Below are positions 3,058-39,583 of a stretch of 47,355 nt of DNA, in pieces. The translations under genes and the position numbers were made by a program. The stretch's first letter is position 1. Each line of letters starts with the position of its first letter. Under the pieces are notes generated by a model. It worked only from the letters and a program-made list of their open reading frames with translations. It made no database searches and had not been told where the DNA came from. Source of the DNA: Clostridiaceae bacterium BRH_c20a (lineage in GTDB: Bacteria > Bacillota > Peptococcia > Peptococcales > BICA1-8); the NCBI GenBank assembly GCA_000961765.1, contig LADT01000029.1, forward strand, positions 1-47,355. Reading direction: 5' to 3'.

Positions 3058-3303
3058 CATAACGGGTACATACAAAGACCTTGGCCACGAAATTCTAAAG
3101 GCTTACAGGGCAAATTAGAGGGGCATAATGCAACTGAACAATTTCAGTTTTTTAAGGTTAAGAAAAAGACAAAAAAATATAAACCCGTGAATTACAAAAA
3201 ATAAATTAAATTTTCGGATAGAAAGTTGAGGAGGGTAGGTTAATAATAAGCAGATATAAACAAGTTATCTTTTAAAATTTTACTAGTTTACATAACATTT
3301 ATT
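3058..3303 (+). repeat. Diverged direct repeat, left copy (partner 40424-40713), with candidate att core
   Basis: The segment shares with 40424-40713 a block around ATTCTAAAGGCTTACAGGGC, then a hairpin, and finally an exact 21-base match at 3283-3303 and 40693-40713 (begins CTAGTTTACATAACA). The hairpin stem is kept with changed bases: AACTGAA/TTCAGTT here against AACTGAGC/GCTCAGTT in the other copy. The spacing inside the two copies differs. The exact 21-mer lies 401 bases from the end of the recombinase operon, so it is a candidate attachment site core. Confidence 0.6.
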
Positions 3304-3333
3304 GTCACAAATTATTTTTTCCTTAAAGTAGAA

Positions 3334-3375
3334 GGGAGAGCCCAGTATTAAAGGGCTCTCCCGTTTATTATTTTT
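3334..3375 (+). terminator. Strong intrinsic terminator
   Basis: GGGAGAGCCC (3334-3343) pairs perfectly with GGGCTCTCCC (3353-3362), followed by GTTTATTATTTTT. No rightward gene lies directly upstream, so it either insulates the island edge or ends transcripts entering from the left. Confidence 0.85.
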
Positions 3376-3381
3376 ACAACC

Positions 3382-3420
3382 GGGGAGTGTTGCAAATGTT
3401 TTCGTAAACTCCCCATTTTT
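3382..3420. terminator. Second terminator-like hairpin
   Basis: GGGGAGT (3382-3388) pairs with ACTCCCC (3408-3414) and is followed by ATTTTTAATT. Seven bases after the first terminator's T-run, it makes a tandem terminator. Confidence 0.65.
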
Positions 3421-3703
3421 AATTATCTACCCTATATATATTTTGCTCATATTATAAATAATATATTTATAATAATCAAAATTATTTTTCTCCATATTTT
3501 CTACTAATAGTTATTAGATACTGAGATCTCCGAGAATTATATTTAAAAATAAGATATTGAAGAAAATACTTCACCCAATATCTCTTAAGAAGACACATAT
3601 TATTTACCTTTATGGTTTCTCTGATGGTAAACATCTTAAAACTTTTTCTTTCGGGAAAGCGTAGCTCAGCATTTAAGGAAGCCAAATCAAACTAATTTAA
3701 TAT

Positions 3704-4552
3704 TTAAAAATGTTTTTTATGAATTTTGTTTAAGCGTTTTGTTCTATTATGAAGGTATATTTTTGTAGTATATAAATATTTATGCCCCATTAATGAAGCA
3801 GTATGTTCAATATCTAATCCTTTATCATCAACATTTGATGCAAAAGAATGTCTTAATATATTACAATTTACTTTTTGGTGAAAATCAATCTTTTGCTGAT
3901 ATTTATCAAGAATTCTTTGAAGTGGTGTATTCCTATTTGTTGAAAATCTTTTTCCAAACTTATTTATAAATAAATATGGGCAGTCATCATTTCTTGTACT
4001 TAAATATTCCTTAATTATGACTGCACATCTTGAAGTAAATACAACATGTCTTTTTTTACAACCTTTACCTTTAAGAATAGAGATTGTATTATCATTAAAA
4101 TCAATATCTTCTATTTTAATGTTTATCAATTCTTGAGGTCGAACTCCAGAGTAGAAAAAAACGTTAAGCATTGCTCTATCTCTTAGATGACCTTTACAAG
4201 CTTCATCCAATATCCAAAAGTCCTCCTCAGTAATAATGAAGTAATCTCTTTGAGGTACTTTAATTTTTGAAATCTCCAATGTTGGATTGGAACTAATAAT
4301 ATTCTTCTTAACACAAAATTTAAAAAAAGTCTTGAGAATAGTTAAACATAATCTTCTTGTATTTTCGTTATTACCTTCTTTCTTTAAATGTGAAAGCCAT
4401 GATATAATGTCAACTTCAGTAATATCTTTTATGTCTTTTGGACAATAATCTAAGAATTTCTTAATATGCCGGGGATAATATTTTAAAGTATCTACACTAT
4501 AAAACTGTGACTTTTCTTTTATAAAATACTCAAAAATTTCTTGTTTATCCAT
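3704..4552 (-). CDS. Tyrosine recombinase D (XerC/D-like), HxxR histidine replaced by Asn
   Basis: A 282-residue phage-integrase-family protein, last gene of a leftward operon of four. It has the N-terminal SAM-like core-binding domain (about 1-95) and a catalytic domain with R138 (SGVRPQEL), a lysine at 161 or 163, R234 (NILRHSFA), H257 (GHKYLYTT) and the tyrosine nucleophile Y266 (KIYLH). The usual HxxR motif reads N231-I-L-R234, so one catalytic histidine is replaced. Other recombinases tolerate some change here, but reduced activity or a structural role is possible. It starts 3 bases after the stop of recombinase C, so translation is probably coupled. Confidence 0.9.
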   Translation of the reverse strand: MDKQEIFEYFIKEKSQFYSVDTLKYYPRHIKKFLDYCPKDIKDITEVDIISWLSHLKKEGNNENTRRLCLTILKTFFKFCVKKNIISSNPTLEISKIKVPQRDYFIITEEDFWILDEACKGHLRDRAMLNVFFYSGVRPQELINIKIEDIDFNDNTISILKGKGCKKRHVVFTSRCAVIIKEYLSTRNDDCPYLFINKFGKRFSTNRNTPLQRILDKYQQKIDFHQKVNCNILRHSFASNVDDKGLDIEHTASLMGHKYLYTTKIYLHNRTKRLNKIHKKHF

Positions 4553-4555
4553 TTT

Positions 4556-5413
4556 TCAACCAACACACCTTCTATATTCATTAATTACTTTTGTTAGATT
4601 TGGCGCTAAATACTCTCTTGTAGTAGAGGTATTTTCGTGAAGTAAAATATCAGCAATTGTCTCTATGCTTACTCCTTTATTATTTAATCTACATGCAAAG
4701 GCATGTCTAAATCGATGTGGACCTAATTTTCCCTTAATACCTATAGACCTAAAAAGTTTTGAAGTAATATAATAAATACCTTCACCACTTAAATTAGACT
4801 TACTATTTTTCCTTGTAAAAACAAAGTCATTTCGATTTTTACCTTCAATTATTTGTTGCAGTAATATTGAACATTCTTCAGAGAAATATATATTTCCTGG
4901 TTTATTTCCTTTACCGATAACCTTGGCGTAACATTCTTTAATATTTAGATCTTTCACTTTTAAATTTCTAATTTCAGTTCTTCTAGCTCCGCTTGTTTCA
5001 AAAAGGAGAATAATAATTCTGTTTCTTATATCCAGCTTTTCAACCTCTATAAGAACTTTAGCAATTTCTTCATCATTTAAGTGTTTAGTAGTCCCTGTGG
5101 GGGTTTTAGGTTTCCAATCTGGATCAACGGGATTTATCTTAATTATATTTTTCCTAACACAGTAATTAAAAAAGTTATTTAACACACCTTTGACAAAGAT
5201 ATATGTAAATGGGCTTTTATTTTGATAGTTATATTTTAGCCATTCAAAAATATCGTCTGATTTTATGACTACAATTTCTTTATCAATGTCCCTGAAAGCT
5301 CTTAATAGGACTTTTTGATATTCTTTAAGTGTATTATCAGACCTTCCTAAAACACTTAACTCATTAGTAAAACGCTTAATAATTTGCATGTTTTCATGAT
5401 TAATATTTTCCAA
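4556..5413 (-). CDS. Tyrosine recombinase C (XerC/D-like)
   Basis: A 285-residue tyrosine recombinase with a full catalytic set: R144 (SGARRTEI), K168 (GKGNK), H233-x-x-R236 (PHRFRHAFA), H259 (LHENTSTT) and Y268 (TREYLA). The start is TTG 5413, chosen because AAAAGGAGTG lies at the right distance upstream. It follows recombinase B by 15 bases and precedes D by 3 bases. The family cuts and rejoins DNA at short core sites through a phosphotyrosine intermediate. The four proteins are clearly different from one another, so this is not a recent tandem duplication. Confidence 0.92.
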   Translation of the reverse strand: MENINHENMQIIKRFTNELSVLGRSDNTLKEYQKVLLRAFRDIDKEIVVIKSDDIFEWLKYNYQNKSPFTYIFVKGVLNNFFNYCVRKNIIKINPVDPDWKPKTPTGTTKHLNDEEIAKVLIEVEKLDIRNRIIILLFETSGARRTEIRNLKVKDLNIKECYAKVIGKGNKPGNIYFSEECSILLQQIIEGKNRNDFVFTRKNSKSNLSGEGIYYITSKLFRSIGIKGKLGPHRFRHAFACRLNNKGVSIETIADILLHENTSTTREYLAPNLTKVINEYRRCVG

Positions 5414-5428
5414 TAGAGTGCACTCCTT

Positions 5429-6268
5429 TTAGCGATGATACTGATCATAAAGATTTCTTAAAGATTCAGTAGTTCTAATACAATACAGTTTTGTGCTTTC
5501 CTCACTTTCATGTCCCAACAAATACATGATATAACCTATGTCTGCACCTTTTTCATCTAGCTTAGTTGCAAAGTAGTTTCTAAAAGAATGTGGAGAGATG
5601 GAAACACTTAGTTTTGCTTCAAAAGCAGCATCTTTTACTATTTTCCATACACCTTGCCTTGTGAATTGTTTATTATGTCTAGTTGTAAATAAATACTTAC
5701 TATCTCTTTTTCTATGATTCAAATATAAAATTAATCTTTCTTTACATTCTTTTGTAATAAATACAAATCTTTCAATTTCATCTTTACATATTTCCAGTTT
5801 TATGTTTCTTTTTTTAAAATTAATGTTATTTATTTCTATATTTATTAACTCAGTAACTCTAACTCCTGTGCAAAGAAATACTTCTAGCATGGCTCTATCA
5901 CGCAAATTATTTTTCATAGATTCTTTTAACATAAAAATATCTTTTCCAGATAATAAGTAAGGTTCTTTACGCTCATCTTTTTCTAGGAAATCTACAGCAA
6001 TCATAGGATTAATTTTTAATATCTCTTCTTCAATACAGTAATTAAAAAAGGAAGCCATTGCCGATTTAATCAAATTAATTGAATTTAAAGATAAATCTGT
6101 TGTTAGCAAGTATAAAAACCATTTCCTAATATATTCATAACTTATTTCCTCAAAACTTAGGTTTTTATGTTCATTATAGAATTTCAATAAGTATGGTAAG
6201 TATGTTTTTTTTGTATTGTCACTATAAGAATTACTATCTTCAAAAAAGCTATAAATAGTAGTTAAAAT
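5429..6268 (-). CDS. Tyrosine recombinase B, probable ATT start
   Basis: The longest conventional frame begins at TTG 6187, but the 27 codons before it are in frame and read SDNTKKTYLPYLLKFYNEH, which completes the core-binding domain. The first codon after the upstream in-frame stop is ATT at 6268, six bases after GGGGTG, which overlaps the stop of recombinase A. From there the protein is 279 residues, exactly the length of A, and R137, H227-x-x-R230, H253 and Y262 fall at the same positions as or near those of A. The residue after R230 is Asn (FRNYFAT) instead of the usual His. An ATT start with coupled translation is the best reading; otherwise the gene has lost its start. Confidence 0.85.
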   Translation of the reverse strand: MLTTIYSFFEDSNSYSDNTKKTYLPYLLKFYNEHKNLSFEEISYEYIRKWFLYLLTTDLSLNSINLIKSAMASFFNYCIEEEILKINPMIAVDFLEKDERKEPYLLSGKDIFMLKESMKNNLRDRAMLEVFLCTGVRVTELINIEINNINFKKRNIKLEICKDEIERFVFITKECKERLILYLNHRKRDSKYLFTTRHNKQFTRQGVWKIVKDAAFEAKLSVSISPHSFRNYFATKLDEKGADIGYIMYLLGHESEESTKLYCIRTTESLRNLYDQYHR

Positions 6269-6273
6269 TTAAA

Positions 6274-7113
6274 TCACCCCATCAACTGGTCGTATTTATA
6301 AAGCATTTCATCAGTTGGTAGCTTTGTATAAATTTTAGTTGTTTTAATATACTTATGACCCAATAAGTCTGCAACAACTTTAATATTATTGCTTCTTATT
6401 AACAAGTTCATTGCGAAAGTATGACGAAGACGGTGGACACCATAATTATTTTCACACCCAACTTTTTTGAGTAATTCAGAAACAAAATTATAAATAGAAC
6501 GATCAGATAATCTTTTATCATCATTATTTAAAAATAGAGGTTCATCTTCATTTTTATTACCTAAATACTTTTCAAGAAAAATAGCTGTTTTGGGGGTAAA
6601 AAAAACAGATCTTTCTTTATTCCCTTTACAACGGACTTTTATTGTTCTATTTTTCAAGTCAACATCCTTACAATTAATTCTTACTACCTCAGCCCGTCTT
6701 AATCCAGTGTCATCTATCAATGTCATTGCTACTCTTTCTCTAATAGGTTGTTTTTCAACTAATTCTCTAAATTGTGCATGTTGACCATTTTCCAGATATT
6801 TTGGAAGAGTTTGCTTCTTTTTTTTTCGCCAGCGAATTTTTAAAGGTATTTTATTGATTAATTTATTAATCAGACAGTACTTAAAAAAACTTTTTAAAAC
6901 TGAGTAACAATGATTATATGTATTTGGATTCTTTTTTGCATAATTTTCATCTAACCATTTTTTTATATCATCACATGATAAAGATTCTATTGGTTTTTCA
7001 ATATCATTACAAAGCCTTCGCAAAATTGAATTGTAGCATTTAATAGTTAATTTTGATTTTCGTAACTTTATTTTATACTCCAGAAAAGCTTCTAATATTT
7101 GAATATTATCCAT
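6274..7113 (-). CDS. Tyrosine recombinase A (XerC/D-like), first gene of the recombinase operon
   Basis: A 279-residue recombinase with all catalytic residues: R139 (TGLRRAEV), K163 (CKGNKERS), H227-x-x-R230 (VHRLRHTFA), H253 (GHKYIKTT) and Y262 (KIYTK). A strong AAAAGGAGGAATTCC precedes ATG 7113. Genes B, C and D follow with gaps of 5, 15 and 3 bases, so all four are very probably one transcript. Known multi-recombinase elements such as Tn554 (tnpA, tnpB plus tnpC) and the RIT elements (three recombinases) have two or three, of larger size. This operon has four similar-sized members and a decayed fifth just upstream. Confidence 0.93.
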   Translation of the reverse strand: MDNIQILEAFLEYKIKLRKSKLTIKCYNSILRRLCNDIEKPIESLSCDDIKKWLDENYAKKNPNTYNHCYSVLKSFFKYCLINKLINKIPLKIRWRKKKKQTLPKYLENGQHAQFRELVEKQPIRERVAMTLIDDTGLRRAEVVRINCKDVDLKNRTIKVRCKGNKERSVFFTPKTAIFLEKYLGNKNEDEPLFLNNDDKRLSDRSIYNFVSELLKKVGCENNYGVHRLRHTFAMNLLIRSNNIKVVADLLGHKYIKTTKIYTKLPTDEMLYKYDQLMG

Positions 7114-7144
7114 GGAATTCCTCCTTTTAGGTTTTTTTCTATTT

Positions 7145-7505
7145 TCATCGTTGGTGTATAAATTGTATCGGACTATTAGAAGTAATACCTACCTTTTTGA
7201 AATATTTTTTTAAAAGCAAATTAAGTTGTCTAGTCGTGTACACTTTATTTTGATTGGTAATAAAAAGGTGAGGGAAGTTATCATTTCTGGTGTCCAAATA
7301 TTTAAAAATAAATGTTTACATTCATTTTTAAATATGACATGTCGTTCAAAATAATGCTTTTTATTATTAATAAAAATAGTGTTATCTTTCCAGTTAATAT
7401 TATCTAACTTAAGGAAACTCATTAATGGATACTGATAGTTTTTTATAGTCTGTTGAGTACATTTCGATGAAATATCATTTAAATAATTTGTTAACTCATG
7501 ATTTT
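7145..7505 (-). pseudogene. Fifth tyrosine recombinase, decayed fragment
   Basis: Reading across frames gives LDNINWKDNTIFINNKKHYF, RHVIFKNECKHLF, then in another frame HLFITNQNKVYTTRQL and LLKKYFKKVGITSNSPIQF. These match the middle of the catalytic domain of the intact neighbours, for example the PYLFINKFGKRF and KLGPHRF regions. The catalytic arginine region, the HxxR box and the tyrosine are absent or stop-interrupted. It shows that the array once had at least five members or has been replaced piecemeal. Confidence 0.7.
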
Positions 7506-7856
7506 TTCAGAATCATTATCACTTTAATATAATTTTTCCTATCTTCTTCAAGTAAATCTATAATTATTCATGTTTTAATAAAAATTTTTAATTTTTTTTT
7601 ATTAGTTTTAATGTTCAAATTATATAGTTAGCACAAACTAAATACATATATTGTTTACATTTACTTTGATGAATTTGATTTAAAAAATTATTTATTAACC
7701 CTATTAAAATAAAGCATTATTATCAATTTCTTAGAAGGAAATAAGAAATATAATGTGAATGTCAATGAATTTCTTTACCACTTGACATTCAAAAAGAAAA
7801 CAGATTAATTATTTAGTAAATTTATGTATAGTGATTTTAAATTATAGGGGGGAACT
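7506..7856. other. AT-rich intergenic region between divergent recombinases and AlbA_2 gene
   Basis: About 350 bases, very AT-rich with long A and T runs. I see no gene, strong hairpin or repeat. It should hold the promoters for the rightward AlbA_2 gene and possibly for the recombinase operon. Confidence 0.5.
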
Positions 7857-8847
7857 ATGAGTTCCAACGCAGAATTATTACTAAATAAACTAAAAGATAA
7901 TAGTTATAAACAAATTAAACGAATGATTTCGGAACCACAGGTTGAGAATTTATGGATAGATTTTAAGTGTAAGGAAGATAGAAATATTAACGTTAAAGCA
8001 TCTATTTCTGATAAAACTAACTTTGCTAAGGCATTGTCTGGGTTTACCAATGCATCAGGAGGGCTTTTAATATGGGGGATAGATGCTAGAAAAGATAGTG
8101 AAGGAATTTTTAATTACTCTGAACAGGCAATATCTAACGTAAGCTCATTTAGACAACAACTGGAAAGTCTGCTTCCCGATGCAGTTAGTAGGATACCCGA
8201 GGGTATAGAAATATTTACAATATTAATTCCAGTGAAAGCGATACTGGTTTTTTAGTTTTAATGTTCCTGAAAGTATTAAAGCACCTCATAGAGCCGAATT
8301 TAATATTCAGAGATACTATCGTAGAGTGGGTGATAGCTTTATTAAAATGGATCATGGTCACCTTGAAGACATGTTTGGAAGAAGACAACGACCTGATATA
8401 AATGTTAGATTCTCTTATAAAGAATTAGAAACAAGTCCTGATTTGCATAAATATCAATTCTTTGTTGAGTTTATAAATGAGGGGCGAGTTATGTGCAATT
8501 ATTATGGCTTTGACTTAATTTTTCCATCTGAATCATTTTTAGAAATAAGAGAGCAAGGAAGACCTGATGGGTCTGCTCCAAGACCTGCCTTTACCGGTAG
8601 ATATTTAAAAGAGGAAGTAAGCAAATATTCTGATATGATCAAGATATCATTTAGAAACGCAAGCGATGAGCCACCTTTATTCCCGGGTGAAAAAAAGCAA
8701 ATCACAAGAGCAGGTAGATTTACATATAAAGTGAACCAGAATATTAGAGAATACTACAATAATAGTGAATTACTTGCTCATGTTTATGGAGATAATTCTC
8801 CTATGAAAACTTTTACAATTAAATTTTCAGAAATAAATTGCTTTTAA
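7857..8847 (+). pseudogene. AlbA_2 (Schlafen-type) DNA-binding domain protein, frameshifted
   Basis: The first frame (7857-8255) has the AlbA_2 signature LWIDFKCKEDRN and ALSGFTNASGGLLIWGID. It then goes out of frame: a short SESDTGF piece in a second frame and FNVPESIKAPHRAEFN, YYRRVGDSF in a third continue the expected domain, and the third frame runs to 8847 with an unknown C-terminal domain of about 170 residues. So two indels lie near 8225-8256, the second at a run of T. AlbA_2 domains occur in predicted transcription regulators and Schlafen-like proteins. A good TAGGGGGGAACT ribosome binding site precedes ATG 7857. A sequencing error cannot be excluded. Confidence 0.7.
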
Positions 8848-8891
8848 TTTATAGATAAATCAAATTAATTTTTGTTTAGATATTATAGAAG

Positions 8892-9119
8892 ATGAGTAAA
8901 ATAAAACAGCAAAACAATATTAGAAATATAAAAGATATTAAAATAACTAGAATCAAATTTAAAAAATTTCACTTTAACCATATTCAACTAATATTGGCTA
9001 ATTCCTTAAGTCAATCTAGAAGGGGAAAGGGTATTAAATTTAGAAATACTAATGACATAATTAGGTGGCTTAAGGATGAAAAGAAAAGAGCAAAAATTAG
9101 AGAATCAGAGGATTTTTAA
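8892..9119 (+). CDS. Small basic protein, unknown
   Basis: 75 residues, rich in Lys, Arg, Ile and Asn (MSKIKQQNNIRNIKDIKITR at the start, NDIIRWLKDEKKRAKIRES near the end). There is no membrane segment and no domain I recognise; the charge suggests nucleic acid binding. The ribosome binding site is weak (AGAAG just before the ATG). It is followed three bases later by the next gene, so the two are probably co-transcribed. Confidence 0.5.
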   Translation: MSKIKQQNNIRNIKDIKITRIKFKKFHFNHIQLILANSLSQSRRGKGIKFRNTNDIIRWLKDEKKRAKIRESEDF

Positions 9120-9122
9120 ATA

Positions 9123-9611
9123 ATGAATTATCGATTATTTAGAAAAGAAATTAAGAAAAGAAAGGCCTTTTTAACTAAAAATAGGCTTACATTTCTAGAA
9201 TTCTTCCAGGCAAGTAAAAGCAATGGTAGATTGAGGAATAATTTTGTATTTTATATTCTTACTAGCAGATTATTATTTTTTAAGCTCTATAAACTAACAA
9301 AAATAGATATGCACGCTAAAGCAATGTATGAAAATCTCTATATAGCATTGCAATTATTAAGTAAAGAAAATGGCAACTCGAAAACTATTGCCAAACATTT
9401 ATTGAAAAGATATTTTGCTAGAAACAATTTAGTTAACATTAATGAAAATGAAGTTTCCTATGAAATAAAAAAGTATCTAAAAACTATTGTCACTCAATAT
9501 TATTTAGAAAAAAGTTATACGAAAGCTGATAGAGAATATTTTTATGAACTAATGGGTAATAAAAATATTGGTAACATAATTGAACAAATGTTTACAAAAA
9601 AAGTCCGTTAA
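9123..9611 (+). CDS. Hypothetical helical protein, unknown
   Basis: 162 residues, mostly helical and basic, with LTFLEFFQASKSNGRLRNN and FFKLYKLTKIDMHAKAMYEN. I do not recognise a family. AGAGGA lies 11 bases before ATG 9123. The stop codon lies inside the stem of the terminator at 9601-9622, so transcription ends directly at the gene end. It is paired with the 75-residue gene and could form a two-gene unit of unknown role. AT content and codon use match the adjoining recombinases. Confidence 0.6.
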   Translation: MNYRLFRKEIKKRKAFLTKNRLTFLEFFQASKSNGRLRNNFVFYILTSRLLFFKLYKLTKIDMHAKAMYENLYIALQLLSKENGNSKTIAKHLLKRYFARNNLVNINENEVSYEIKKYLKTIVTQYYLEKSYTKADREYFYELMGNKNIGNIIEQMFTKKVR

Positions 9612-9625
9612 AAAACGGACTTCTT
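9594..9625. terminator. Bidirectional terminator
   Basis: AAGTCCGTT (9601-9609) pairs with AACGGACTT (9614-9622). On the minus strand the stem is followed by a run of seven T, so it is strongest for the leftward small gene at 9932-10072; rightward it ends the gene that stops at 9611. Confidence 0.75.
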
Positions 9626-9931
9626 GCTATCAGTATAACCAGCGGTTTAACACCAAATGGAATCAAATGAGTATGCCGCCTTTCCGCCCTTATTTTAACA
9701 CTTTTTAACTGCAGAAGTTGAACAGTAAGACCGCTTGGAATTAAAAACCATGTTTCATTAGAATACAAAAAGGTATTAGTGAAAGCTATTCTAAATCTAG
9801 CCTGTGGGCGATCGAGGCTCTACCCTCAAAATTCTGAGGTTTATCGCTTTTGTTTTACAACAGGAAAGTTAAGGCTGAACACTATCGGTCAAAAAGTTTT
9901 TTTAGCGGAAAAGATGTTTAACCTTTAACGG
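9626..9931. other. Gene-free stretch with hairpin and short direct repeats
   Basis: No gene is visible. Around 9806-9853 there is a nested hairpin: GCGAT...ATCGC outside and CCTCA-AAATTC-TGAGG inside, followed by TTTTG. The motif CGGTCAA(A)...TTTTTTTAGCGG occurs at about 9888-9907 and again, slightly changed, at about 9929-9948 (CGGTCAAGGTTTTTTAGTGG). It could be the 3' untranslated region of the leftward small gene or a small RNA. Confidence 0.4.
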
Positions 9932-10072
9932 TCAAGGTTTTTTAGTGGGTATACAAATAGAAGCATCAACTGTGTTTTTAATAATATTTATTGTTTTAGG
10001 AGTACTATGTTTAAGGATGTTGCTAAGCTCTTCAATAGTAAAACCATTCTGTTGGCATTTTTTCTTTTTCAA
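9932..10072 (-). CDS. Short 46-residue protein with strong ribosome binding site
   Basis: On the minus strand GAGGAGGTAACAATT precedes a TTG codon at 10072, opening 46 codons that start MKKKKCQQNGFTIEELSNIL and end at TGA 9932-9934. The GAGGAGGT is the best ribosome binding site in this part of the window, which supports real translation. The protein is basic with one helical segment and no known domain. A bidirectional terminator follows at 9594-9625, roughly 310 bases downstream. It may be a regulator or a toxin or antitoxin peptide, but nothing in it decides this. Confidence 0.5.
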   Translation of the reverse strand: MKKKKCQQNGFTIEELSNILKHSTPKTINIIKNTVDASICIPTKKP

Positions 10073-10247
10073 AATTGTTACCTCCTCAAAAAAATTTGTA
10101 CACTATTTATATTTTAGAATAATATTTCTTAAAGTATACATAAAATAAATTATTTTAAAAAAGCTAACAAATTAATCATTTCTATTCTTAAAATTTTTAA
10201 ATGGTACTTTAGAAAATATGTATAAATTTCTAACATTCCAGCCATTA

Positions 10248-11684
10248 TTATGCTATTCCGTCTTCTTCAATTTCCGAACTTGGTAACGCAACAATTTCTG
10301 GAGCCTGTAAAGAACGTGTTGCTTTTTCAACTGTATCTAGATTATCAATATCAGAAACTGAATATCCACCTAATTCTTTAAACTTTCTTGCGGTTACTAA
10401 AACCCTATTTTCTAAAGTCCCAACAGCTTTATTATAAGCATCAACAGAGTTATCTAATCCTTTTCTAATATCTGCAAAATGACCAGCTAAAACCCTAATT
10501 CTATCATATAGTGTTTTCCCCAAATCGCTTATTGCTTGAGCATTCTCTGCGATTTTTTCCTGTTTCCATCCATAAGCAACGGCTCGAAGAAGAGCAATAA
10601 GAGTAGTAGGGGTAGCCAGTATAACCCGCTGTTCAACACCATATTCAATCAAAGATGGGTCTTGTTCCAAAGCAGCACTAAAGAATGTTTCACCAGGGAG
10701 AAACAAAATAACAAATTCAGGCGTAGAGTTAAATTGCTCCCAGTAACCTTTAGATCCTAATTGTGATAAATGATTTTTTATTTGTCTAGCATGATCCTTT
10801 AGCTTGTTTAGTTTTAGAGCCTCATCTTGGGTTTCTAATGCTTCAAGATATCCTTGTAATGGTGTCTTGGAATCAACAATTATTTGTTTGTTCCCTGGCA
10901 ATTTTATTATCATATCAGGGCGAAGACGAGTATTGTCTTTACTAACTGTCTCTTGCTGTAGAAAATCACAATGTTCTATCATTCCAGCCATTTCTACAAC
11001 CCGCTTAAGTTGCATTTCCCCCCAACGGCCACGAACAGTAGGACTCCGTAAAGCTTTTACTAAGTTTGCAGTTTCTGATTGTAATGCAAGCTGAGTAGTA
11101 TAAAGCGACTTTACTTGTTCATTTAAACCTTCATACGCCTTAATACGTTCTTTCTCAATTTCGCCTATCTTACCATCTACTTTTTCTAGTGATTCTTTAA
11201 GTGGTTTAATAACCTGATCTATTGCTTTTTGTCTTGTTTCTAAGTCTGATTTTGCAGAATCCTGATATTTCTCTAATGTGGTTTTGGCTAGTTCTAAGAA
11301 GGATTGATTATTACTCTTAAGTGCATCAGATGATAAGGCTTTAAAAGCGTCTAACAATTTTACTTGTGCCTTATCTACTAATGATAATTTTTCTTCAGCA
11401 TTTTTCCTTTCTTCATTAATTTGAGTTTTTAATTCGGATTGTTTTGTAACTAATTCTCTTACTTCTATTTCTAGCTCTGACATTTTTATTTCCTTATCTT
11501 TAACTTGATTTCTAAGTTCTTCGATAATTATATCTTTACCATTAATTCTTTCCATTAAAGTTGCTCGTTCAGCTTCAAATTCACCTTTTGCCATATTATA
11601 GGCACCTTTTACTTTTGATTGTAAAATTATAAAAACCATAATTCCACCAATGACTAGCCCTATAAGGATTGATATAATATCCAT
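10248..11684 (-). CDS. rmuC: RmuC family DNA recombination protein
   Basis: 478 residues in the usual RmuC order: one N-terminal membrane anchor (about 3-22), a long coiled coil (about 30-200), then the RmuC nuclease-like domain with [34 protein letters not shown] (a D-x-K catalytic pair) and [12 protein letters not shown]. RmuC limits rearrangements such as inversions at inverted repeats, and its fold belongs to the PD-(D/E)xK nucleases. GGGAGG lies 10 bases before ATG 11684. It is divergent from the PIN-domain gene. It is usually a housekeeping gene; its presence between repeat-flanked defence genes is notable but not proof of a defence role. Confidence 0.93.
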
Positions 11685-11856
11685 TTATCTATAACCTCCC
11701 AATGGTATTTACTTTGATATTACCATAAAGAGGTAAAATGGCAAAAAGCATTTCCAAACTTAAGCATAATTTGTAAAACTATAACAGGAAAAATAATAAT
11801 TTTAGGGAATATATACCTTATTAATATTTATGATGCATATTAATTGGAGGAAATTG

Positions 11857-12654
11857 ATGATCTATGTATTTTTAGATACAAATATCCTACTAAACAAACC
11901 AAATATTATCCATGATTTTATTGATAGGAAAATTAACATTGTAATACCTGTTACTATTTTTGATGAATTAGATAATCATAAAAAAAGAGATGACCTTGGA
12001 TATGCTGCTAGATCAACTGGAAGAGTAATTGAAAGTATTATAGCTAATACAAATTACTTGCACCTTACAAATGATTATAAGCAAGATCCTCACCTTAATT
12101 TAAAGAAAGCCGATGATAGAATTCTATCATCGGCGGTAGCTTTTTTTGAGCAAGGTAAGTTAGTAGTTCTAATAAGTAACGATAGGTTTTTGAGGTTAAA
12201 GGCTGAAGCATTTAAAATAAATGTATTTTCAAGCCTTAATAATTTTTATAATTCACAAATATATATAAAAAGCTTAGATTTAAATTCTACAAAAAACTTA
12301 CAACAAGCAACAAGAGACAATGATAATAAAGGTGAAGAAAAAATAACAAATAGAAGAGCGAAATCAAATAATTTCCTATCTTTAGAGGAAAAAAGAATGA
12401 TTTTAAATTCCTTTCATGAGCTTGCAGAGAAAAAAGATAATCAAAATAGATACCATTACTATTTTTTGAATAGTAAAACAGGTCGCAAGAATATAGCCCG
12501 TGAATTTATTGCTTCAGGAAATGGTTATATATATGGAGAAAATTTGCCCCAATATCAAAAATTAACAGACCCTAGAGGATGGGTAAATGTAAAATATTTT
12601 ACTAAGGAAGAACTTATTGAATTAGTAACTAAAGCTATAGAGGCTCATAAATAA
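11857..12654 (+). CDS. PIN-domain ribonuclease-like protein
   Basis: 265 residues from ATG 11857, chosen because TTGGAGGAAATTG precedes it, although the frame is open from 11830. The N-terminal 120 residues form a PIN domain of PhoH/YlaK type: FLDTNILL (first Asp), TIFDELDNHK (Glu/Asp), ADDRILSSA and ISNDRFLRLKA (later acids). PIN domains are Mg-dependent RNases. The C-terminal part (about 180-265), with RGWVNVKYFTKEELIELV, is unknown to me and no PhoH ATPase domain follows. It is single, without an antitoxin gene, and divergent from rmuC. Confidence 0.8.
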   Translation: MIYVFLDTNILLNKPNIIHDFIDRKINIVIPVTIFDELDNHKKRDDLGYAARSTGRVIESIIANTNYLHLTNDYKQDPHLNLKKADDRILSSAVAFFEQGKLVVLISNDRFLRLKAEAFKINVFSSLNNFYNSQIYIKSLDLNSTKNLQQATRDNDNKGEEKITNRRAKSNNFLSLEEKRMILNSFHELAEKKDNQNRYHYYFLNSKTGRKNIAREFIASGNGYIYGENLPQYQKLTDPRGWVNVKYFTKEELIELVTKAIEAHK

Positions 12655-12789
12655 TTAAGCGTATCATTGAAAGTTATTGTCCTAATGTCTATTAATGGGA
12701 AACTGAAATGTTTCACTTAATGAGGATTGATAATTAAATATGACGAACAAAAATTGAAGGTATTTGTAACTATATAAGGAAAATTATAG

Positions 12790-12954
12790 ATGAGGATTAT
12801 CTTAATACACCCTCAACCTGACAAAGTTGGTAATAGTGTGCGATTCCTTAGAGAACTTATAGGGATAAACCATATCCACCAAGATGTTAGTGAATATGCA
12901 CTACTACTTGGAGTAAGGAGGATAAATGAAAATAACAAAAGAAGATTTGATTGA
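12790..12954 (+). CDS. Possible short leader gene overlapping the CBASS effector
   Basis: 54 codons starting MRIILIHPQPDKVGNSVRFL, with AAGGAAA seven bases upstream. It ends at TGA 12952-12954, overlapping the first 29 bases of the CBASS effector gene in another frame. Such an overlap would couple the two. I recognise no domain, and it could equally be an open frame by chance or a remnant. Confidence 0.35.
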   Translation: MRIILIHPQPDKVGNSVRFLRELIGINHIHQDVSEYALLLGVRRINENNKRRFD

Positions 12955-14017
12955 ACTATTCAAAATACTAATACCGTTTGCTAATAAACCAATAGAGTCG
13001 TTCATCATTAAATTCTTCCTCAACATGGGAAGAGCTTTAATCATCGGACTTTTTACAAAACCATGGTGGGAATCAGTTGTTTTAGAACTAATTGATAAAC
13101 AGTTTGGTACGAATTTTAGTTCTTCAGGGAGCACACTAAGTTGGGGTTTATTTGGAATGGCAATATTATCTTGGGTAATTGCATTAGTTTTTTATTGGTT
13201 GACGGTTTATAAGCAGAAACAGCCTAAGAAAAGAGCAATATCTATTTATCAACATTCTGTAGAAAATGTAGTCGATAGAAATCCTATTTCGGATGATGAG
13301 AGTATATATGAGATTGATTTAACTCGTGAACTACGCGTTAAAACTAAACATAATGTATTAAATGCATTGGAAAAGCAATTTGAAAGAACACTCACAATTC
13401 AAGAAACTATAAAACGTGAAGAGCATACTAATGTCAATTATTATGGATTGGCAAGTGTTCCTTTTACAATGCTTCTTGGCTATTGTATATCTGATAAGTA
13501 TAAAACGACATTCAATGAATGGGATAACAATAGAAAGAAGTGGGTTCGGTTAACTACTGATAACAATTATCCTCAAATAGAAGTTAAGTCCAAATATGGA
13601 TTAAATAAAGATTCAAGAGTTGGGGATTTGATTATAAGAGTCAATTTCACAACTGAAGTTATGGATGAACATATTGAGAATCTTGATTTGGAATCATTGA
13701 ACGTTATCGACTTTGGAGTAACGAAACCTGAAAGAGGATTAATAAAATCTGAAGCTCAAATAGTTAAGTATCAAGAGAAATTTAGGAATCTACTTGATGA
13801 TATCAATGCGTATTATCCAAATATCAAGAGATTGCATGTCTTTATGTCTGCACAGCCATCAATAGTATTCTCTCTTGGTAGTAAGATTAGTGAACGGATG
13901 GATGCAGAAGTTATTGTATACGAACATTCAAAAAAAGGAAGTATTAGATATCCTTGGGGGATACGACTTTCCAAAAGTAATAAAGATATGGAAAGTATGA
14001 TCGTTAAATTAAGTTAG
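12926..14017 (+). CDS. CBASS effector: two-TM SAVED-domain protein
   Basis: 363 residues. The N-terminal part has hydrophobic segments at about 30-50 and 72-95 (LSWGLFGMAILSWVIALVFY), and the C-terminal half is a SAVED domain, recognised by IKRLHVFMSAQPSIVFSLGS and AEVIVYEHSKKG. SAVED domains bind cyclic oligonucleotides made by a CD-NTase, and membrane-anchored versions are thought to damage the inner membrane and kill infected cells. GTAAGGAGGATAA precedes ATG 12926. The CD-NTase follows 10 bases later, giving a type I (two-gene) CBASS with effector first. No Cap2/Cap3 or HORMA/TRIP13 genes are present. Confidence 0.88.
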   Translation: MKITKEDLIELFKILIPFANKPIESFIIKFFLNMGRALIIGLFTKPWWESVVLELIDKQFGTNFSSSGSTLSWGLFGMAILSWVIALVFYWLTVYKQKQPKKRAISIYQHSVENVVDRNPISDDESIYEIDLTRELRVKTKHNVLNALEKQFERTLTIQETIKREEHTNVNYYGLASVPFTMLLGYCISDKYKTTFNEWDNNRKKWVRLTTDNNYPQIEVKSKYGLNKDSRVGDLIIRVNFTTEVMDEHIENLDLESLNVIDFGVTKPERGLIKSEAQIVKYQEKFRNLLDDINAYYPNIKRLHVFMSAQPSIVFSLGSKISERMDAEVIVYEHSKKGSIRYPWGIRLSKSNKDMESMIVKLS

Positions 14018-14027
14018 GGGGGACTAA

Positions 14028-15362
14028 ATGTACTCGCTGGGTAATGATTTTATTAGATTCTATTGGAATCACGTTGTACTTTCAGCACAAGAGACTAAAA
14101 ATCTGAGAGAAAAGTATCAGATTAATATTAACAGAGTGAAAAATGGGCTTAGTGAATATAATGAAGAGAATAAGACTTCATATGAATTATTAGAACATGT
14201 TGTCCAAGGTAGTGTTTCTATGGCTACTATTACACAGAATGACGACCAAAATTACGACATTGATGTTGCAGTTGTCTTTGATACTGATGAACTACCTGAA
14301 GGGACTACTGCAACAAAGAACATTATTGTGGATTCATTGAAGAGAAAGTGCAAAAGTTTCAATACAGAACCTGAATTTAAAACCAACTGCATTAGAATAC
14401 AGTACGAAGATGGATATCATATTGATTTTGCAGTATATAGAAGAAGCGAAAAAAATTTCTTTGGAAGATATGAATATGAACATTGTGGTAGTCAGTTCCG
14501 AAGAAGAGACCCAAGAGCAATCAATCGATGGTATTTAGGTGCTGATGCCGAAAAGGGAGGCTACTTGAATCCTATTGTTAGACTTCTAAAAATGTTCACC
14601 AAATCGAGGAGCTCTTGGAATATGCCTGGTGGGTTGATATTATCTGTTCTAGCATATGAATGTTTTGGTAATGGTGAAACTATTGAAGAAGTATATGTTG
14701 AAACGCTGAAGAATATTTACAATAGATTATTTTGGAATACGGAAGTGTTGAATCCAGTAGATACAAGCACAAGTCTTCTACTAACAGAAGCTGATAACAT
14801 TCGAATTGATAATCTAAAGAAAAGGTTGGAGACATATCTCGAAAAACTTGAAGTTCTGGAGAATTGGGGATGCTCTAGAAAAGAAGCTATTGATGCTTGG
14901 GAAGTATTTTTTAACCATAGCTATTTTATTGATTTGAAGAATGATGAGGTCAACCATGAAATCATTCTTCATGATGAAGAAAAATATATTAATGAGCTAT
15001 TTTATATTAGTAATGAGAAATCTCTTGAGCTGGACTGTTATGTTATAAATAATGACTCAGGAACCGTTGAGAGATTGTCGAATATTCTAAGCAAAGGTAA
15101 GAAAATCCCTCTTAAAAGAGAATTAGAGTTTTTCATTAATGAAACAAATGTAAGTTATCCATATAAAGTATATTGGAAAGTTAGAAATTCTGGTGATGTT
15201 GCCCTTTCAAAGAATATGTTAAGAGGAGATATATCTACAACTGGAAATGATACTAGAAGCAAAGAAGAAAGCTCTTTTGCGGGTAATCACTATGTCGAGT
15301 GTTATTTAATTAAGAATGATGTTTGTGTTGCAACAGATATTATTAGTGTTCCTATAGGATAA
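14028..15362 (+). CDS. CBASS CD-NTase (cyclic oligonucleotide synthase) with AGS-C sensor domain
   Basis: 444 residues with the polymerase-beta-like nucleotidyltransferase core: GS at 61-62 (QGSVSMATIT), metal-binding acids D77 and D79 (YDIDVAVVFD) and the third acid D133 (YHIDFAVY). The C-terminus has the adenylyl/guanylyl and SMODS sensor fold (AGS-C): VYWKVRNSGDVA, LRGDI, SSFAGNHYVECYLI. The enzyme makes a cyclic nucleotide second messenger on phage infection that activates the SAVED effector just upstream. AGGGGGGACTAA precedes the ATG. The exact product (cyclic di- or trinucleotide) cannot be read from the sequence. A terminator follows at 15367. Confidence 0.92.
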   Translation: MYSLGNDFIRFYWNHVVLSAQETKNLREKYQININRVKNGLSEYNEENKTSYELLEHVVQGSVSMATITQNDDQNYDIDVAVVFDTDELPEGTTATKNIIVDSLKRKCKSFNTEPEFKTNCIRIQYEDGYHIDFAVYRRSEKNFFGRYEYEHCGSQFRRRDPRAINRWYLGADAEKGGYLNPIVRLLKMFTKSRSSWNMPGGLILSVLAYECFGNGETIEEVYVETLKNIYNRLFWNTEVLNPVDTSTSLLLTEADNIRIDNLKKRLETYLEKLEVLENWGCSRKEAIDAWEVFFNHSYFIDLKNDEVNHEIILHDEEKYINELFYISNEKSLELDCYVINNDSGTVERLSNILSKGKKIPLKRELEFFINETNVSYPYKVYWKVRNSGDVALSKNMLRGDISTTGNDTRSKEESSFAGNHYVECYLIKNDVCVATDIISVPIG

Positions 15363-15366
15363 TCGG

Positions 15367-15390
15367 AAAGGCCTCTTTTAGAGCCTTTTC
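15367..15390 (+). terminator. Terminator of the CBASS operon
   Basis: AAAGGCCTC-TTTTA-GAGCCTTTT forms a stem with one bulged C directly after the CD-NTase stop codon. The T-run is short. Confidence 0.6.
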
Positions 15391-15734
15391 ACATCTGTAA
15401 AAGAATAAAGGGGATAGGTTCGTTGTCCTAGATACATCTACTTTTATATGAATAGTTATATAAGATCGCAGTTACAACGATACGGGAACCGTACAATAAG
15501 ATTATTTATGATATTCTAATTTATAAATCAGAGTAGATTATAAATATGCCGGTTCGGGGTAATTTCACCATAACCGGTTTTTATACTTGAATCAATGGCT
15601 TTAGACTGTAGGTGTCTAAACACATGAAATAAAAGTTATAAGAAGACAATGTAACAGATTAACTTCAAACAAGATTATCAGCCCTAAAGAAAAATTACTT
15701 AAAGGGTTGTATTGAGGGCAATACATGCTTATTC
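15391..15734. other. Intergenic stretch with one hairpin
   Basis: No gene is visible. CCGGTT (15549-15554) pairs with AACCGG (15572-15577), followed by TTTTTAT, a plausible weak terminator. The rest shows nothing I can name. Confidence 0.45.
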
Positions 15735-16091
15735 TTGAGAATTCAAGGCAAGAATTGCAAAACCCTTGACTGTGTCAAGCAAAAAGGAGTAGATTATTGT
15801 TTCAACTGTGGTACCTTTCCTTGTGAGTATTTGATGCCACTTGCCGATGGGGCAGATAAAATTTCCACAAATATTAAACCATATAATCTTTGTTTAATGA
15901 AAAGAATTGGTATTGATGCTTGGGTCAAAAAAGCTAGTGATATCAGGAAAACATGTTTCACTAAAAAGATTGTAATTGGTATAAGTGGGGCAAAGAGGAT
16001 TAGGGCTAGGGAAAATAGGTTTATTATCCCAATAAATAAGAAAATATTAAAAGAGATATACTGTTGTAGCATAATCAATTGCACATTATAA
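15735..16091 (+). pseudogene. DUF3795 Cys-rich protein, fragment
   Basis: The frame starts inside a zinc-binding-like Cys cluster: GKNCKTLDCVKQKGVDYCFN, then CGTFPCEYLMPLAD. This pattern is that of DUF3795 proteins, common and uncharacterised in Clostridia and methanogens. The usual N-terminus with its first cysteines is missing, there is no start codon with a ribosome binding site (only TTG 15735), and after DIRKTCF the frame appears to shift, so the C-terminus is not native. It is probably a remnant. Confidence 0.6.
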
Positions 16092-16497
16092 AAAGGGTGC
16101 CTAAGTATTTGATTAGCACCGCAAAATTTTTAGTTTAATATGAAATTTACATCTATCCATTACAAAGAAATATCAATAGGAGATAGAGTCAACCATGTTT
16201 ACTAAGTTTATAGGAAATATAAGGTAAATGGCTAAATTAAAAGCGTAGTATCTGTATGCGGAACGGCGGGGTAAGTTGGGTTGTGCTGCCAAAATTTTCA
16301 TCCTCTTCTTTTGGCTTTCTTCGTTAACGATATATATAATATTATTAAAGACAGATGAATATTAATATAAGTTTCAGCAATTCGCGATCGTAAGTTTGAC
16401 AACTTTATTGTTGTCTAATTAACTATCGCTTTTTTCATTGATGTAGTTAATTACCGTCTTAAGTTTTTCCGAAACTATTTATTAAAGGATGGATCTA
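16092..16497. other. Intergenic stretch
   Basis: GGTGC...GCACC at about 16097-16121 forms a weak hairpin after the DUF3795 fragment. The remaining ~370 bases show no gene or strong structure. Confidence 0.4.
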
Positions 16498-16698
16498 ATG
16501 AGTTTAACATTTCAACTGACAGTATTTTTTAACCTCAATTCAGATGGTACTTTTGATGGAGCAAGTTACGGTTATAGGGTTTACGACGATTATGTTCTAC
16601 GGATTATTGTAACTTATTACATATTAGGCCTTTTTTTCATTAAAGGATTAACGGTGATTTTGTTGAATAATATCGGTATAACTGAAAAAACGACATAA
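16498..16698 (+). CDS. Small membrane protein, unknown
   Basis: 66 residues from ATG 16498 (MSLTFQLTVFFNLNSDGTFD), with one hydrophobic segment (YVLRIIVTYYILGLFFIKGL). AAAGGATGG lies upstream, and a terminator follows immediately. The last codons, ITEKTT, and the terminator lie in a repeat found again at 33206-33303, where only the 3' end of such a gene remains (TEKTA, stop). That suggests a real gene family whose second copy was lost. No function can be given. Confidence 0.45.
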   Translation: MSLTFQLTVFFNLNSDGTFDGASYGYRVYDDYVLRIIVTYYILGLFFIKGLTVILLNNIGITEKTT

Positions 16699-16770
16699 CT
16701 TAAAGCTACCTTACTCTGGAAAAGTGGGAGGTAGTTTTTTATATGTTCCGATAATGTAGCTAATGTCTAT
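16681..16770 (+). repeat. Direct repeat with terminator, copy 1 (partner 33206-33303)
   Basis: Starts ACTGAAAAAACGACATAA, includes the terminator hairpin AGCTACC...GGTAGT-TTTTT (16704-16740) and ends CTAATGTCTAT. The copy at 33206 is about 75-80% identical with a few indels. The two copies bracket the TerB, Avs-like and phosphoesterase genes. Confidence 0.7.
16704..16740 (+). terminator. Terminator after the small membrane protein gene
   Basis: AGCTACC (16704-16710) pairs with the GGTAGT at 16730-16735, followed by TTTTT. It is nearly the same structure as the terminator at 33228-33266. Confidence 0.75.
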
Positions 16771-16848
16771 CCTGAAAACTACTTTGTTATGCAAGACAAA
16801 AAAGGCAAAAAGAAACCAGACCCAAGCAAATGGGTGGGCATAAAATAA
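16755..16848 (+). pseudogene. Orphan C-terminal gene remnant
   Basis: One frame reads NVANVYPENYFVMQDKKGKK then PDPSKWVGIK and a TAA. The composition is protein-like rather than random for this AT-rich DNA, but the upstream part runs into the terminator, so only the tail of a gene is left. I do not recognise the family. Confidence 0.3.
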
Positions 16849-16868
16849 ATCTAAAATTGAATTGTTAT

Positions 16869-17683
16869 CTAAGCTGTACTTGCCTCAATTTGTTGGTCAA
16901 TGTTAACGGTATACCTAAGCGATTCAAGCCGTTTGACAGATTTTTTTACAATCTCATTTTTTCGGCACTGCTCAAAGAAGTCTGGGCCAAGCTCTTGGTA
17001 AGGAATATTATCTTTAAGCATATGATACACAATTGTAAGGATAGTATGAGCTACTGCTATAGTAGCACGGTTTTTCCCTCTCCTTGCTGCAATTCTCGAG
17101 TATTGAGCGCTAAAATAGGTTTTTTTTAGATGAGCGGATACCTTGGCACACTCTATAAACGTAGCTTTGAGTATATCGCTTCCATTACGGGTTTTCCCAC
17201 TTTTGCGTTTGCCTGCACTTTCATTGTTGCCAGGGCATAGTCCAGCCCATGAAGCAAATGAGCAGCAGATGGGAACTGATTCATATTGATGCCAATTTCT
17301 GCAATAATAACTTGTGCGCTACGTTCACCAACTCCGGGAATAGAGTCGACAAGACTTACTTGTTCATTGACCGGGATCATCTTTTTTTGGATTTCTTGAT
17401 CAAGCGAAAGGATCTGTGCATCAAGAATATCAATGTGCTGGAGCATTAGGCGTAACATTACCCTTTGATGGTCACCCATAAAACCTTGGAGTACTTCTTC
17501 GATTTGGGATATTTTCTTACGCATCTGTCTACGTGCTTTATCTGCTATAGCATTAACATCATTATAGCCAGCTACGAGCATATCAAGCATTTGACGGGAT
17601 GATTTACCATTGATTTCGCTTATAACAGAACCTAATTTAATGTTTGCACCTTCAAGTTGGATAGTCAACACTAATCTAGACAA
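16869..17683 (-). pseudogene. IS110-family transposase, truncated and frameshifted
   Basis: The leftward frame reads LEGANIKLGSVISEINGKS, a coiled segment and SLVDSIPGVGERSAQVIIAE, the Transposase_20 helix-hairpin-helix that marks IS110/IS1111. After FPSAAHL the frame shifts; the continuation ASWAGLCPGNNESAGKRKSG (with the catalytic-site serine region of this family) and later VAHTILTIVYHML runs in another frame to TAG 16869-16871. The N-terminal DEDD (RuvC-like) half is missing. The element is dead, and its 5' end is joined to an IS3 remnant. Confidence 0.85.
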
Positions 17684-17912
17684 CTTTTTTAAGGTTATGT
17701 AATTTATACTCTTTAGGACTCAAATAACCTAAGGTTGAATTAATCCTAAAGTTATTAAACCAGTTAACATAATCTGCCAGCATTATATCCAGTTGCTCTA
17801 AGCTATCGAAATGGTAGTTGTTCACAAATTCGGTTTTGAATATTTTGAAGGTTGATTCTGCAACTGCATTGTCCCAGTTATGACGAATTCGGTATAAATG
17901 GGGTAATGCCTG
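17676..17912 (-). pseudogene. IS3-family transposase (OrfB), C-terminal remnant
   Basis: The leftward reading gives NWDNAVAESTFKIFKTEFVN, then QLDIMLADYVNWFNNFR and STLGYLSPKEYK, the end of an IS3-type DDE integrase core including the catalytic Glu of AVAESTF. Only about 75 codons remain. It is cut off on the left by the IS110 fragment and on the right by another IS3 tail of opposite orientation. Confidence 0.8.
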
Positions 17913-18093
17913 TATAGAATCCTTTCATGCTCTAATAAAGCGAGAATGGCTCAACCGTTATGTTATTAAGCACATTAGACATGCTCATGAATTGATATTT
18001 GAGTACATAGAAACCTTCTATAGCACAGTCAGGATTAACGAGTATTGTGGCATGATGTCACCTTATGATTTCGAAAGAGCTTTATTAAGTTAA
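17902..18093 (+). pseudogene. Second IS3-family transposase (OrfB), C-terminal remnant
   Basis: Rightward frame: NACIESFHALIKREWLNRY, FEYIETFYSTVRINEYCGMM and SPYDFERALLS, stop 18091-18093. This is the last 60 residues of an IS3/IS150-type integrase, including the catalytic Glu in IESFHA. It overlaps the opposite IS3 remnant by a few bases, so two IS copies recombined or inserted into each other. Confidence 0.8.
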
Positions 18094-18294
18094 GATGCTA
18101 AACGGGAATTATATCTACTTTTTACTTGTCCGAAATCATGACAGAAGTCCACATGACCTTGTCTAGTCTATCGTAACCTATCCACATAAGACGGACGCGT
18201 ATTGAGGTATGTAAAGGGAAAATTATCACAGTTTATTTTATCGGACACAACATTAGCATAATTAGCTATACGAAAAGCAAAGGTGGTGAGAAAT

Positions 18295-21996: not shown

Positions 21997-21998
21997 CA

Positions 21999-31240: not shown

Positions 31241-31241
31241 C

Positions 31242-32246: not shown

Positions 32247-32277
32247 ATGTTAAATAAAAATCTTAAGGAGTGCTTTT

Positions 32278-39579: not shown

Positions 39580-39583
39580 TAAA

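What the first reader, a model, noticed from the sequence alone, without database searches (positions are those of the whole stretch)
3704..7505. Operon of four tyrosine recombinases with a dead fifth
Four adjacent, co-directed, similar-sized (279-285 aa) tyrosine recombinases with gaps of 5, 15 and 3 bases form one operon. They are mutually diverged. A, B and C keep the R/HxxR/H/Y set, and D has Asn in place of the HxxR His. A fifth, decayed copy lies just upstream. Known multi-recombinase elements (Tn554; RIT trios) have two or three larger proteins. A quartet may be a new class of integration machine, or a site-specific inversion system. It lies next to one end of a repeat-flanked 37-kb island.
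Basis: partly seen in the sequence, partly recalled or inferred. Interest (0 to 1): 0.75.

Follow-up and report, generated by a model that had tools for sequence, protein, structure and literature searches.

The report
Four-recombinase defence island at chromosomal dif
Four small DNA-cutting-and-joining enzymes in one operon sit at one end of a 37-kb block of anti-phage defence genes that lies exactly at the chromosome's own dimer-resolution site (dif), which points to a mobile defence island that brings its own set of Xer-like enzymes to insert there.

Summary
In detail: four intact, co-directed tyrosine recombinases (279, 279, 285, 282 aa; gaps 5, 15, 3) and a decayed fifth. They are two ancient types in alternation, alpha (A, C) and beta (B, D). 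The same alpha-beta-alpha-beta quartet occurs four times in three genomes, and alpha-beta pairs in three more. In all four quartets, and only there, the last gene (beta2) has lost the HxxR histidine. The operon is not RIT, Tn554, GInt or SE.

The key finding lies outside the given coordinates. The 37-kb island is bounded by a near-consensus dif site at the GC-skew switch (40695-40722) and a second dif-like site beside the quartet (3285-3312). The two share the 6-bp core and the XerD arm (17 bp), but not the XerC arm. Two other genomes show the same layout independently: [hybrid dif]-beta/alpha genes-defence cargo-[chromosomal dif].

Best reading: an IMEX-like island that integrates at dif, carries anti-phage cargo (Shango, CBASS; elsewhere Gabija, nuclease genes), and encodes its own Xer-like alpha/beta recombinases. 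Integration at dif is well supported. Catalysis by alpha/beta, and the role of the fourth subunit, are inferred. G137's quartet is not at dif, and G050's location is unresolved.

The parts
6274..7113 (-). Recombinase A = alpha1 (279 aa), catalytic set R-K-H-R-H-Y
5429..6268 (-). Recombinase B = beta1 (279 aa, ATT start), R-K-H-R-H-Y
4556..5413 (-). Recombinase C = alpha2 (285 aa), R-K-H-R-H-Y
3704..4552 (-). Recombinase D = beta2 (282 aa), HxxR His replaced by Asn (R-K-N-R-H-Y)
7154..7413 (-). Remnant of a further beta gene, frameshifted
40695..40722 (-). Chromosomal dif: ACTTCCCATAA TAAATG TTATGTAAACT (21 of 22 arm bases); cargo-side end of the island, at the GC-skew switch
3285..3312 (-). 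Hybrid dif-like site beside the quartet: ATTTGTGACAA TAAATG TTATGTAAACT; core and XerD arm identical to dif, XerC arm different
3313..40694 (.). 37.4-kb island between the two dif sites: recombinases plus defence cargo
40145..40533 (+). Copy of the XerD-side flank of the hybrid site (pairs with 1359-1575 and 3055-3168)
12926..15362 (+). CBASS: SAVED effector (12926-14017) and CD-NTase (14028-15362), cargo
18283..25471 (+). Shango system SngA (18283-21996), SngB (21999-23321), SngC (23318-25471), cargo
33313..35580 (+). Candidate defence gene PDC-S46 (E 3e-227), cargo
10248..11684 (-). RmuC-like gene, matches RTasRmuC of DRT systems, cargo
41482..42111 (+). LexA-like repressor gene on the XerC side of dif (host flank); named from the sequence, not run against a library
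   Evidence: sequence read directly

Best explanation
The operon is the integration module of a genomic island that inserts into the chromosomal dif site. Alpha and beta are arm-less, Xer-like recombinases that most likely work as an obligate hetero-pair, as XerC and XerD do, on a dif-like attachment site of the element: element-specific XerC-type arm, 6-bp core matching the host dif, and the common XerD arm. Recombination with host dif leaves two junctions. The one far from the recombinases (host XerC arm + core + XerD arm) is again a good dif, so the host can still resolve chromosome dimers. The one beside the recombinases is a hybrid with a foreign XerC arm, probably a poor XerCD substrate, which would keep the island stable until alpha/beta excise it. 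The quartet is a doubled alpha-beta pair; beta2, which lost the HxxR histidine, probably keeps DNA binding and synapsis but is catalytically biased, giving the reaction direction. SHOWN: quartets, clades, beta2 His loss, two dif sites with shared 17-bp core/XerD arm in three genomes, position at the skew switch, defence cargo. INFERRED: that alpha/beta (not host XerCD) catalyse it, the hetero-pairing, the role of beta2, present mobility.
For: (1) Four quartets in three genomes (G000, G050 x2, G137), all alpha-beta-alpha-beta; pairs in G072, G096 (alpha broken), G192 (both broken). (2) Alpha clade 100/99, beta clade 95/88, both apart from Xer. (3) HxxR His missing in 4 of 4 beta2 (N, R, L, R) and in 0 of 15 other members. 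(4) Window, G096 and G192 each hold exactly two exact copies of their own dif core+XerD arm: one at the chromosomal dif, one beside the alpha/beta genes; expected chance copies are 5e-5 to 2e-4 per region searched. The core differs between genomes (TAAATG, TAAATC, TGTATA) but is the same at both ends within each. (5) Cumulative GC-skew maxima fall 0.1-1.3 kb from the dif assigned: G192 86500, G096 1580500, G137 1392500, window about 42000. (6) Same layout and orientation in all three islands (37.4, 16.7, 18.4 kb), XerC arm of the hybrid site facing the recombinase genes. (7) Sites scoring >=18 of 22: none in 1.02 Mb of background. (8) Junction type: in window and G096 homology to the other end runs only on the XerD side and stops at the XerC arm. 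(9) Defence genes beside the arrays: Shango, CBASS, Thoeris, Gabija and others.
Against: The G137 quartet lies 263 kb from that genome's dif, with only a weak site (16 of 22) nearby. In G050 and G072 the dif-like site beside the genes (18 and 17 of 22) has no known partner, because their chromosomal dif is not on hand. No empty site or circular form was seen; the window's genus has one genome. Host XerC and XerD are present and could do the job alone. The duplicated XerD-side flank (about 500 bp in window and G096, absent in G192) is not explained by simple integration. Profiles and trees rest on 19 divergent sequences.
Confidence: 0.66

Rival explanations
1. A classical IMEX: host XerC and XerD integrate the island at dif, and the alpha/beta genes do something else (control of directionality, excision, removal of competing elements) or are cargo.
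For: All described IMEX use host Xer. The XerD arm and core at both ends are the host type. Host XerC/XerD-like genes are present.
Against: The recombinase genes sit directly beside the hybrid site in window, G096 and G192 (about 26-392 bp). The described IMEX GGI and TLCphi keep the XerC arm and vary the XerD arm; here the XerD arm is kept and the XerC arm varies, as expected if another protein reads that arm. Conserved operon and catalytic residues argue for a catalytic role.
Confidence: 0.22
2. A self-contained second dimer-resolution or dif-maintenance system that keeps the terminus functional around large insertions.
For: Location at the terminus; Xer-like fold; nearest solved structure XerA.
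Against: Rare (alpha above 297 bits in 4 of 398 phylum genomes), broken in two genomes, absent from the corresponding region of the sister species of G137, tied to accessory cargo.
Confidence: 0.05
3. An accidental pile-up of unrelated phage-type integrases in a hotspot.
For: dif regions and defence islands collect mobile genes; a decayed copy is present.
Against: Same order, same two clades and the same His loss in distant genomes; exact second dif core beside the genes in three genomes.
Confidence: 0.03
4. A site-specific inversion system (shufflon) for defence or surface genes.
For: XerA-like recombinases lie beside hsdS genes on some plasmids.
Against: The two dif sites are direct repeats, so recombination excises rather than inverts; no inverted site pairs or duplicated gene halves were seen in the island.
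Confidence: 0.04

Closest known systems
[quoted passage not shown]
   Same: Integrated at chromosomal dif; ends with one good dif and one modified dif; large islands known (GGI 57 kb).
   Different: Known IMEX rely on host XerCD or XerL. This element encodes two to four Xer-like recombinases. The conserved arm is XerD here; GGI and TLCphi keep XerC.
H. pylori TnPZ with XerT
   Same: Mobile island carrying its own Xer-related recombinase.
   Different: One recombinase, heptanucleotide targets at many sites, conjugation genes; not at dif.
GInt islands (ginABCD)
   Same: Operon of several tyrosine recombinases at one end of a cargo island, direct repeats at the ends.
   Different: Three integrases plus a small GinD; 10-17 nt repeats, often at ssb; target not dif.
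RIT (ritA-ritB-ritC) and Tn554 (tnpA-tnpB-tnpC)
   Same: Adjacent co-directed tyrosine recombinase genes; this genome's RIT-like trio also has two members without the HxxR His.
   Different: Two or three larger proteins, other lineages; RIT rows do not join alpha or beta.
Strand-biased circularizing elements (intA-tfp-intB-srap)
   Same: Operon of paired recombinases with overlapping genes, one partner lacking catalytic residues.
   Different: Gammaproteobacterial; four recombinase genes here and no separate srap-like gene; imperfect inverted repeats at the SE ends; SE target not dif.

Membership tests
IMEX | Element integrated at the chromosomal dif | tested here: met
   dif at the skew switch forms one end in window, G096, G192; not met for G137
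IMEX | dif-like attachment site sharing core and at least one Xer arm with host dif | tested here: met
   17 identical bases (core + XerD arm) in three genomes
IMEX | Integration carried out by host XerC/XerD, element without own recombinase | tested here: not met
   The element encodes its own Xer-like recombinases; who catalyses is not testable here. So it works like an IMEX but is not filed as one.
RIT | Trio ritA-ritB-ritC | tested here: not met
   Four genes, two alternating types; RIT-like trio of the same genome is separate. Caution: long RIT branches
Tn554 | TnpA plus a much larger TnpB and TnpC | tested here: not met
   All four proteins are 279-285 aa and no TnpC-like gene follows; no sequence comparison with Tn554 was made
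GInt | ginABC plus small ginD, all at one end | tested here: not met
   Four recombinases with full or near-full catalytic sets; no small gene in the operon after D
XerC/XerD | NCBIfam equivalog cut-off (335 / 330 bits) | tested here: not met
   103-183 bits
Integron integrase | NCBIfam integron integrase cut-off (265 bits) | tested here: not met
   48-103 bits
Simple (arm-less) tyrosine recombinases | Core-binding plus catalytic domain only, R-K-H-R-H-Y | tested here: met
   AlphaFold models pLDDT 89 and 87, top PDB match XerA for both; residues

The most novel reading that the evidence does not exclude
A recombinase synapse built from four different, dedicated subunits (alpha1, beta1, alpha2 and a catalytically altered beta2), one per arm, that targets dif with its own specificity and moves stacked anti-phage islands in and out of the replication terminus independently of XerCD/FtsK.
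Probability: 0.2. Interest if true: 0.92.

Novelty: new variant of a known kind. Interest (0 to 1): 0.78.

Why it matters
Islands at dif were known to borrow the host's Xer enzymes. An island class that brings its own Xer-like pair or quartet would show how defence islands can be placed at a site that every host must keep intact, and how the element keeps a working dif for the cell. The consistent loss of one catalytic histidine in the last subunit makes a concrete model for direction control, and for the open question of why several tyrosine recombinases occur in one operon, testable in a simple plasmid assay. It also gives a rule for finding more: look between dif and the nearest second dif core.

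Tried and rejected
Rejected: inversion/shufflon (end sites are direct repeats). RIT membership (tree). The long flanking repeat as a dispersed repeat or MITE (full copies only at the two island ends; elsewhere only 50-95 bp matches). The XerD-side flank as a conserved element end (similar within a genome, not between genomes beyond about 40 bp). Led nowhere: family members among plasmids and phages (best 131 and 139 bits for the G072 alpha, against 188 bits between window A and the G072 alpha); viral and genome contig scans with an alpha alignment (only Xer-like singles and the G072 contig; the viral hits were not examined further); related genomes of the same class (46 genomes, none but the window); empty site for G137 in its sister species G099 (variable region without alpha/beta but with no clean border). 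G137's weak site at L050 10711-10738 is not clearly better than chance. Literature searches found no description of such quartets or of dif islands with their own recombinase sets, in open-licence papers only. My defence-gene control is rough: at E<=1e-30 at least 10 of 38 neighbouring genes against about 5 of 122 control genes; 12 further families of the control list were not displayed, not all 38 were scanned, and regions were placed by hand, so it is supportive only.
Full report
WHAT IS THERE. The four reported ORFs are exact. On the minus strand A (6274-7113), B (5429-6268, ATT start), C (4556-5413) and D (3704-4552) follow each other with gaps of 5, 15 and 3 bases. All match the phage integrase family and, more closely, XerA-like and Xer-like models, below every equivalog cut-off. 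A frameshifted beta-type fragment lies at 7413-7154. AlphaFold models (pLDDT 89 for A, 87 for B) match XerA best in the PDB, without an arm-binding domain.

TWO TYPES IN ALTERNATION. A and C on one side, B and D on the other, are each other's kin across genomes although identities are mostly 25-39%. In a maximum-likelihood tree alpha is one clade (100/99) and beta another (95/88), both outside Xer and other singles. With the very divergent RIT rows included, beta stays a clade (96/93) and alpha is unresolved. Full alpha-beta-alpha-beta quartets occur in G050 (twice), G137 and the window; alpha-beta pairs in G072, G096 (alpha broken) and G192 (both broken). Among 398 genomes of the phylum only four exceed 297 bits with the alpha profile, the rest stay below 229, so the family is rare. 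Best hits in plasmid and phage collections are far weaker.

THE FOURTH SUBUNIT. All members carry R-K-H-R-H-Y except the last gene of each quartet: N in D, R and L in G050, R in G137. Four of four, against none of fifteen other members; if four losses fell at random on the sixteen quartet genes, this pattern has probability 1/1820. The beta2 rows do not form one clade (AU p 0.0145), which hints at repeated loss, but branches are long and this is not firm.

THE ENDS. The 23/24-bp repeat at 3280-3303 and 40690-40713 contains a dif core. Read on the minus strand, 40695-40722 is ACTTCCCATAA TAAATG TTATGTAAACT, matching 21 of 22 arm bases of a Firmicutes dif consensus written from memory of the B. 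subtilis site; 3285-3312 is ATTTGTGACAA TAAATG TTATGTAAACT, with the same core and XerD arm but another XerC arm. The same pattern was then looked for in the other loci. G096: dif at 1579850-1579877 (ACGTCCTATAA TAAATC TTATGTAAACT) and, about 125 bp after beta, ACCTCAGATAC TAAATC TTATGTAAACT, with a third site 100 bp closer. G192: dif at 86614-86641 (GGTTCCGATAA TGTATA TTATGTTAACT) and, next to beta, CGATCTCAGAT TGTATA TTATGTTAACT. In each genome exactly two exact copies of core+XerD arm were found in the sequence held; chance expectation is 5e-5 to 2e-4. G192 has a further copy with one mismatch at 61297-61313, so older or stacked insertions are possible. That the first sites of each pair are the chromosomal dif is supported by GC skew: cumulative maxima at about 42000 in the window (a plateau from 40 to 42.5 kb), 1580500 in G096, 86500 in G192, 1392500 in G137. 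In 1.02 Mb of background no site scored 18 or more.

LAYOUT. In all three islands the order is hybrid site, beta end of the operon, operon, cargo, chromosomal dif, with the XerC arm of the hybrid site facing the genes; sizes 37.4, 16.7 and 18.4 kb. In window and G096 about 500 bp on the XerD side of both sites are alike (98.6% and 80% blocks in the window, 82% over 498 bp in G096), while the XerC sides differ, so the homology stops at the core, as at a site-specific junction. G192 lacks this flank similarity. The flank is not shared between genomes, so it is probably host-derived; how the element came to carry it is unexplained.

CARGO. Window: CBASS, Shango, PDC-S46, an RmuC-like gene. G096: Gabija inside the island, and a Stk2-like kinase and SngC just outside the hybrid site. 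G192: Cap4-type nuclease and PDC-S36. G050: Thoeris directly after its second quartet. G072: AbiJ-like, HD-CE and a NACHT protein. G137: a DUF4238 gene, also found in G192. A control of random regions gave fewer and more generic matches, but that control is rough, and defence islands attract mobile genes in general.

MECHANISM. Established knowledge: XerC and XerD each bind one arm of dif and exchange strands at the borders of the 6-bp core; IMEX insert at dif with a mimic site and use host Xer. Here the element supplies its own Xer-like proteins. The conserved XerD arm and varying XerC arm fit a pair in which one subunit reads the common arm and the other an element-specific arm. The distal junction rebuilds a full dif, so the host is not harmed; the proximal hybrid should recombine poorly with XerCD, like the modified sites of GGI and LME-1. 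Beta2, without its general acid/base histidine, could hold a position in the synapse and bias which strands are cut. These steps are inference.

LIMITS. G137's quartet is 263 kb from its dif. G050 and G072 have dif-like sites beside the genes (18 and 17 of 22) but their chromosomal dif is not known. No empty site, circle or activity was observed. The dif consensus used for scoring came from memory, but the shared 17-mers and skew positions do not depend on it.

Noticed in passing
window 1359-1575 and 3055-3168 versus 40145-40533; G096 1579850-1580342 versus 1596587-1597084: About 500 bp on the XerD side of both dif sites are duplicated within the genome but not shared between genomes; not explained by simple integration.
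   Followed up: partly
L173 2798-2814 (G192 contig 49, 61297-61313): A third dif-like core (one mismatch) 6.9 kb beyond the hybrid site: possible stacked or older insertion at dif.
   Followed up: partly
L052 9488-9515 and 9588-9615: Two dif-like sites 100 bp apart right after beta in G096, with different cores (AAAATG, TAAATC).
   Followed up: partly
L055 9236-12439 (G000 contig 27): RIT-like trio (410, 323, 336 aa) in the same genome; two of the three proteins lack the HxxR His (R and Y).
   Followed up: partly
L050 10774-11841 and L173 11924-12961: A DUF4238 gene lies close to the alpha/beta genes in both G137 and G192; possible uncharacterised cargo or defence gene.
   Followed up: no
L049 970-2205, 8950-9981, 14054-15196: In G050 the quartets and Thoeris lie between paralogous secreted-protein genes that share leader and terminator sequences; one leader holds a c-di-GMP-I riboswitch.
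   Followed up: partly
window 25710-30371: 1553-aa gene right after Shango with only a weak, partial match (PDC-M54A) and no Pfam match.
   Followed up: no
window 418-492 and 36366-36442: Group II intron ends (Rfam RF00029), one inside the island and one near the contig end, which probably broke the assembly.
   Followed up: no
window 513-1330: Gene fragments that look like a REP-associated (IS200-type) transposase just left of the repeat; a second decayed one seems to interrupt the repeat at about 1576-2160. Read from the sequence, not searched.
   Followed up: no
window 16680-16770 and 33205-33303: 99-bp direct repeat (80%) inside the island, before two different cargo blocks; role unknown.
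   Followed up: no
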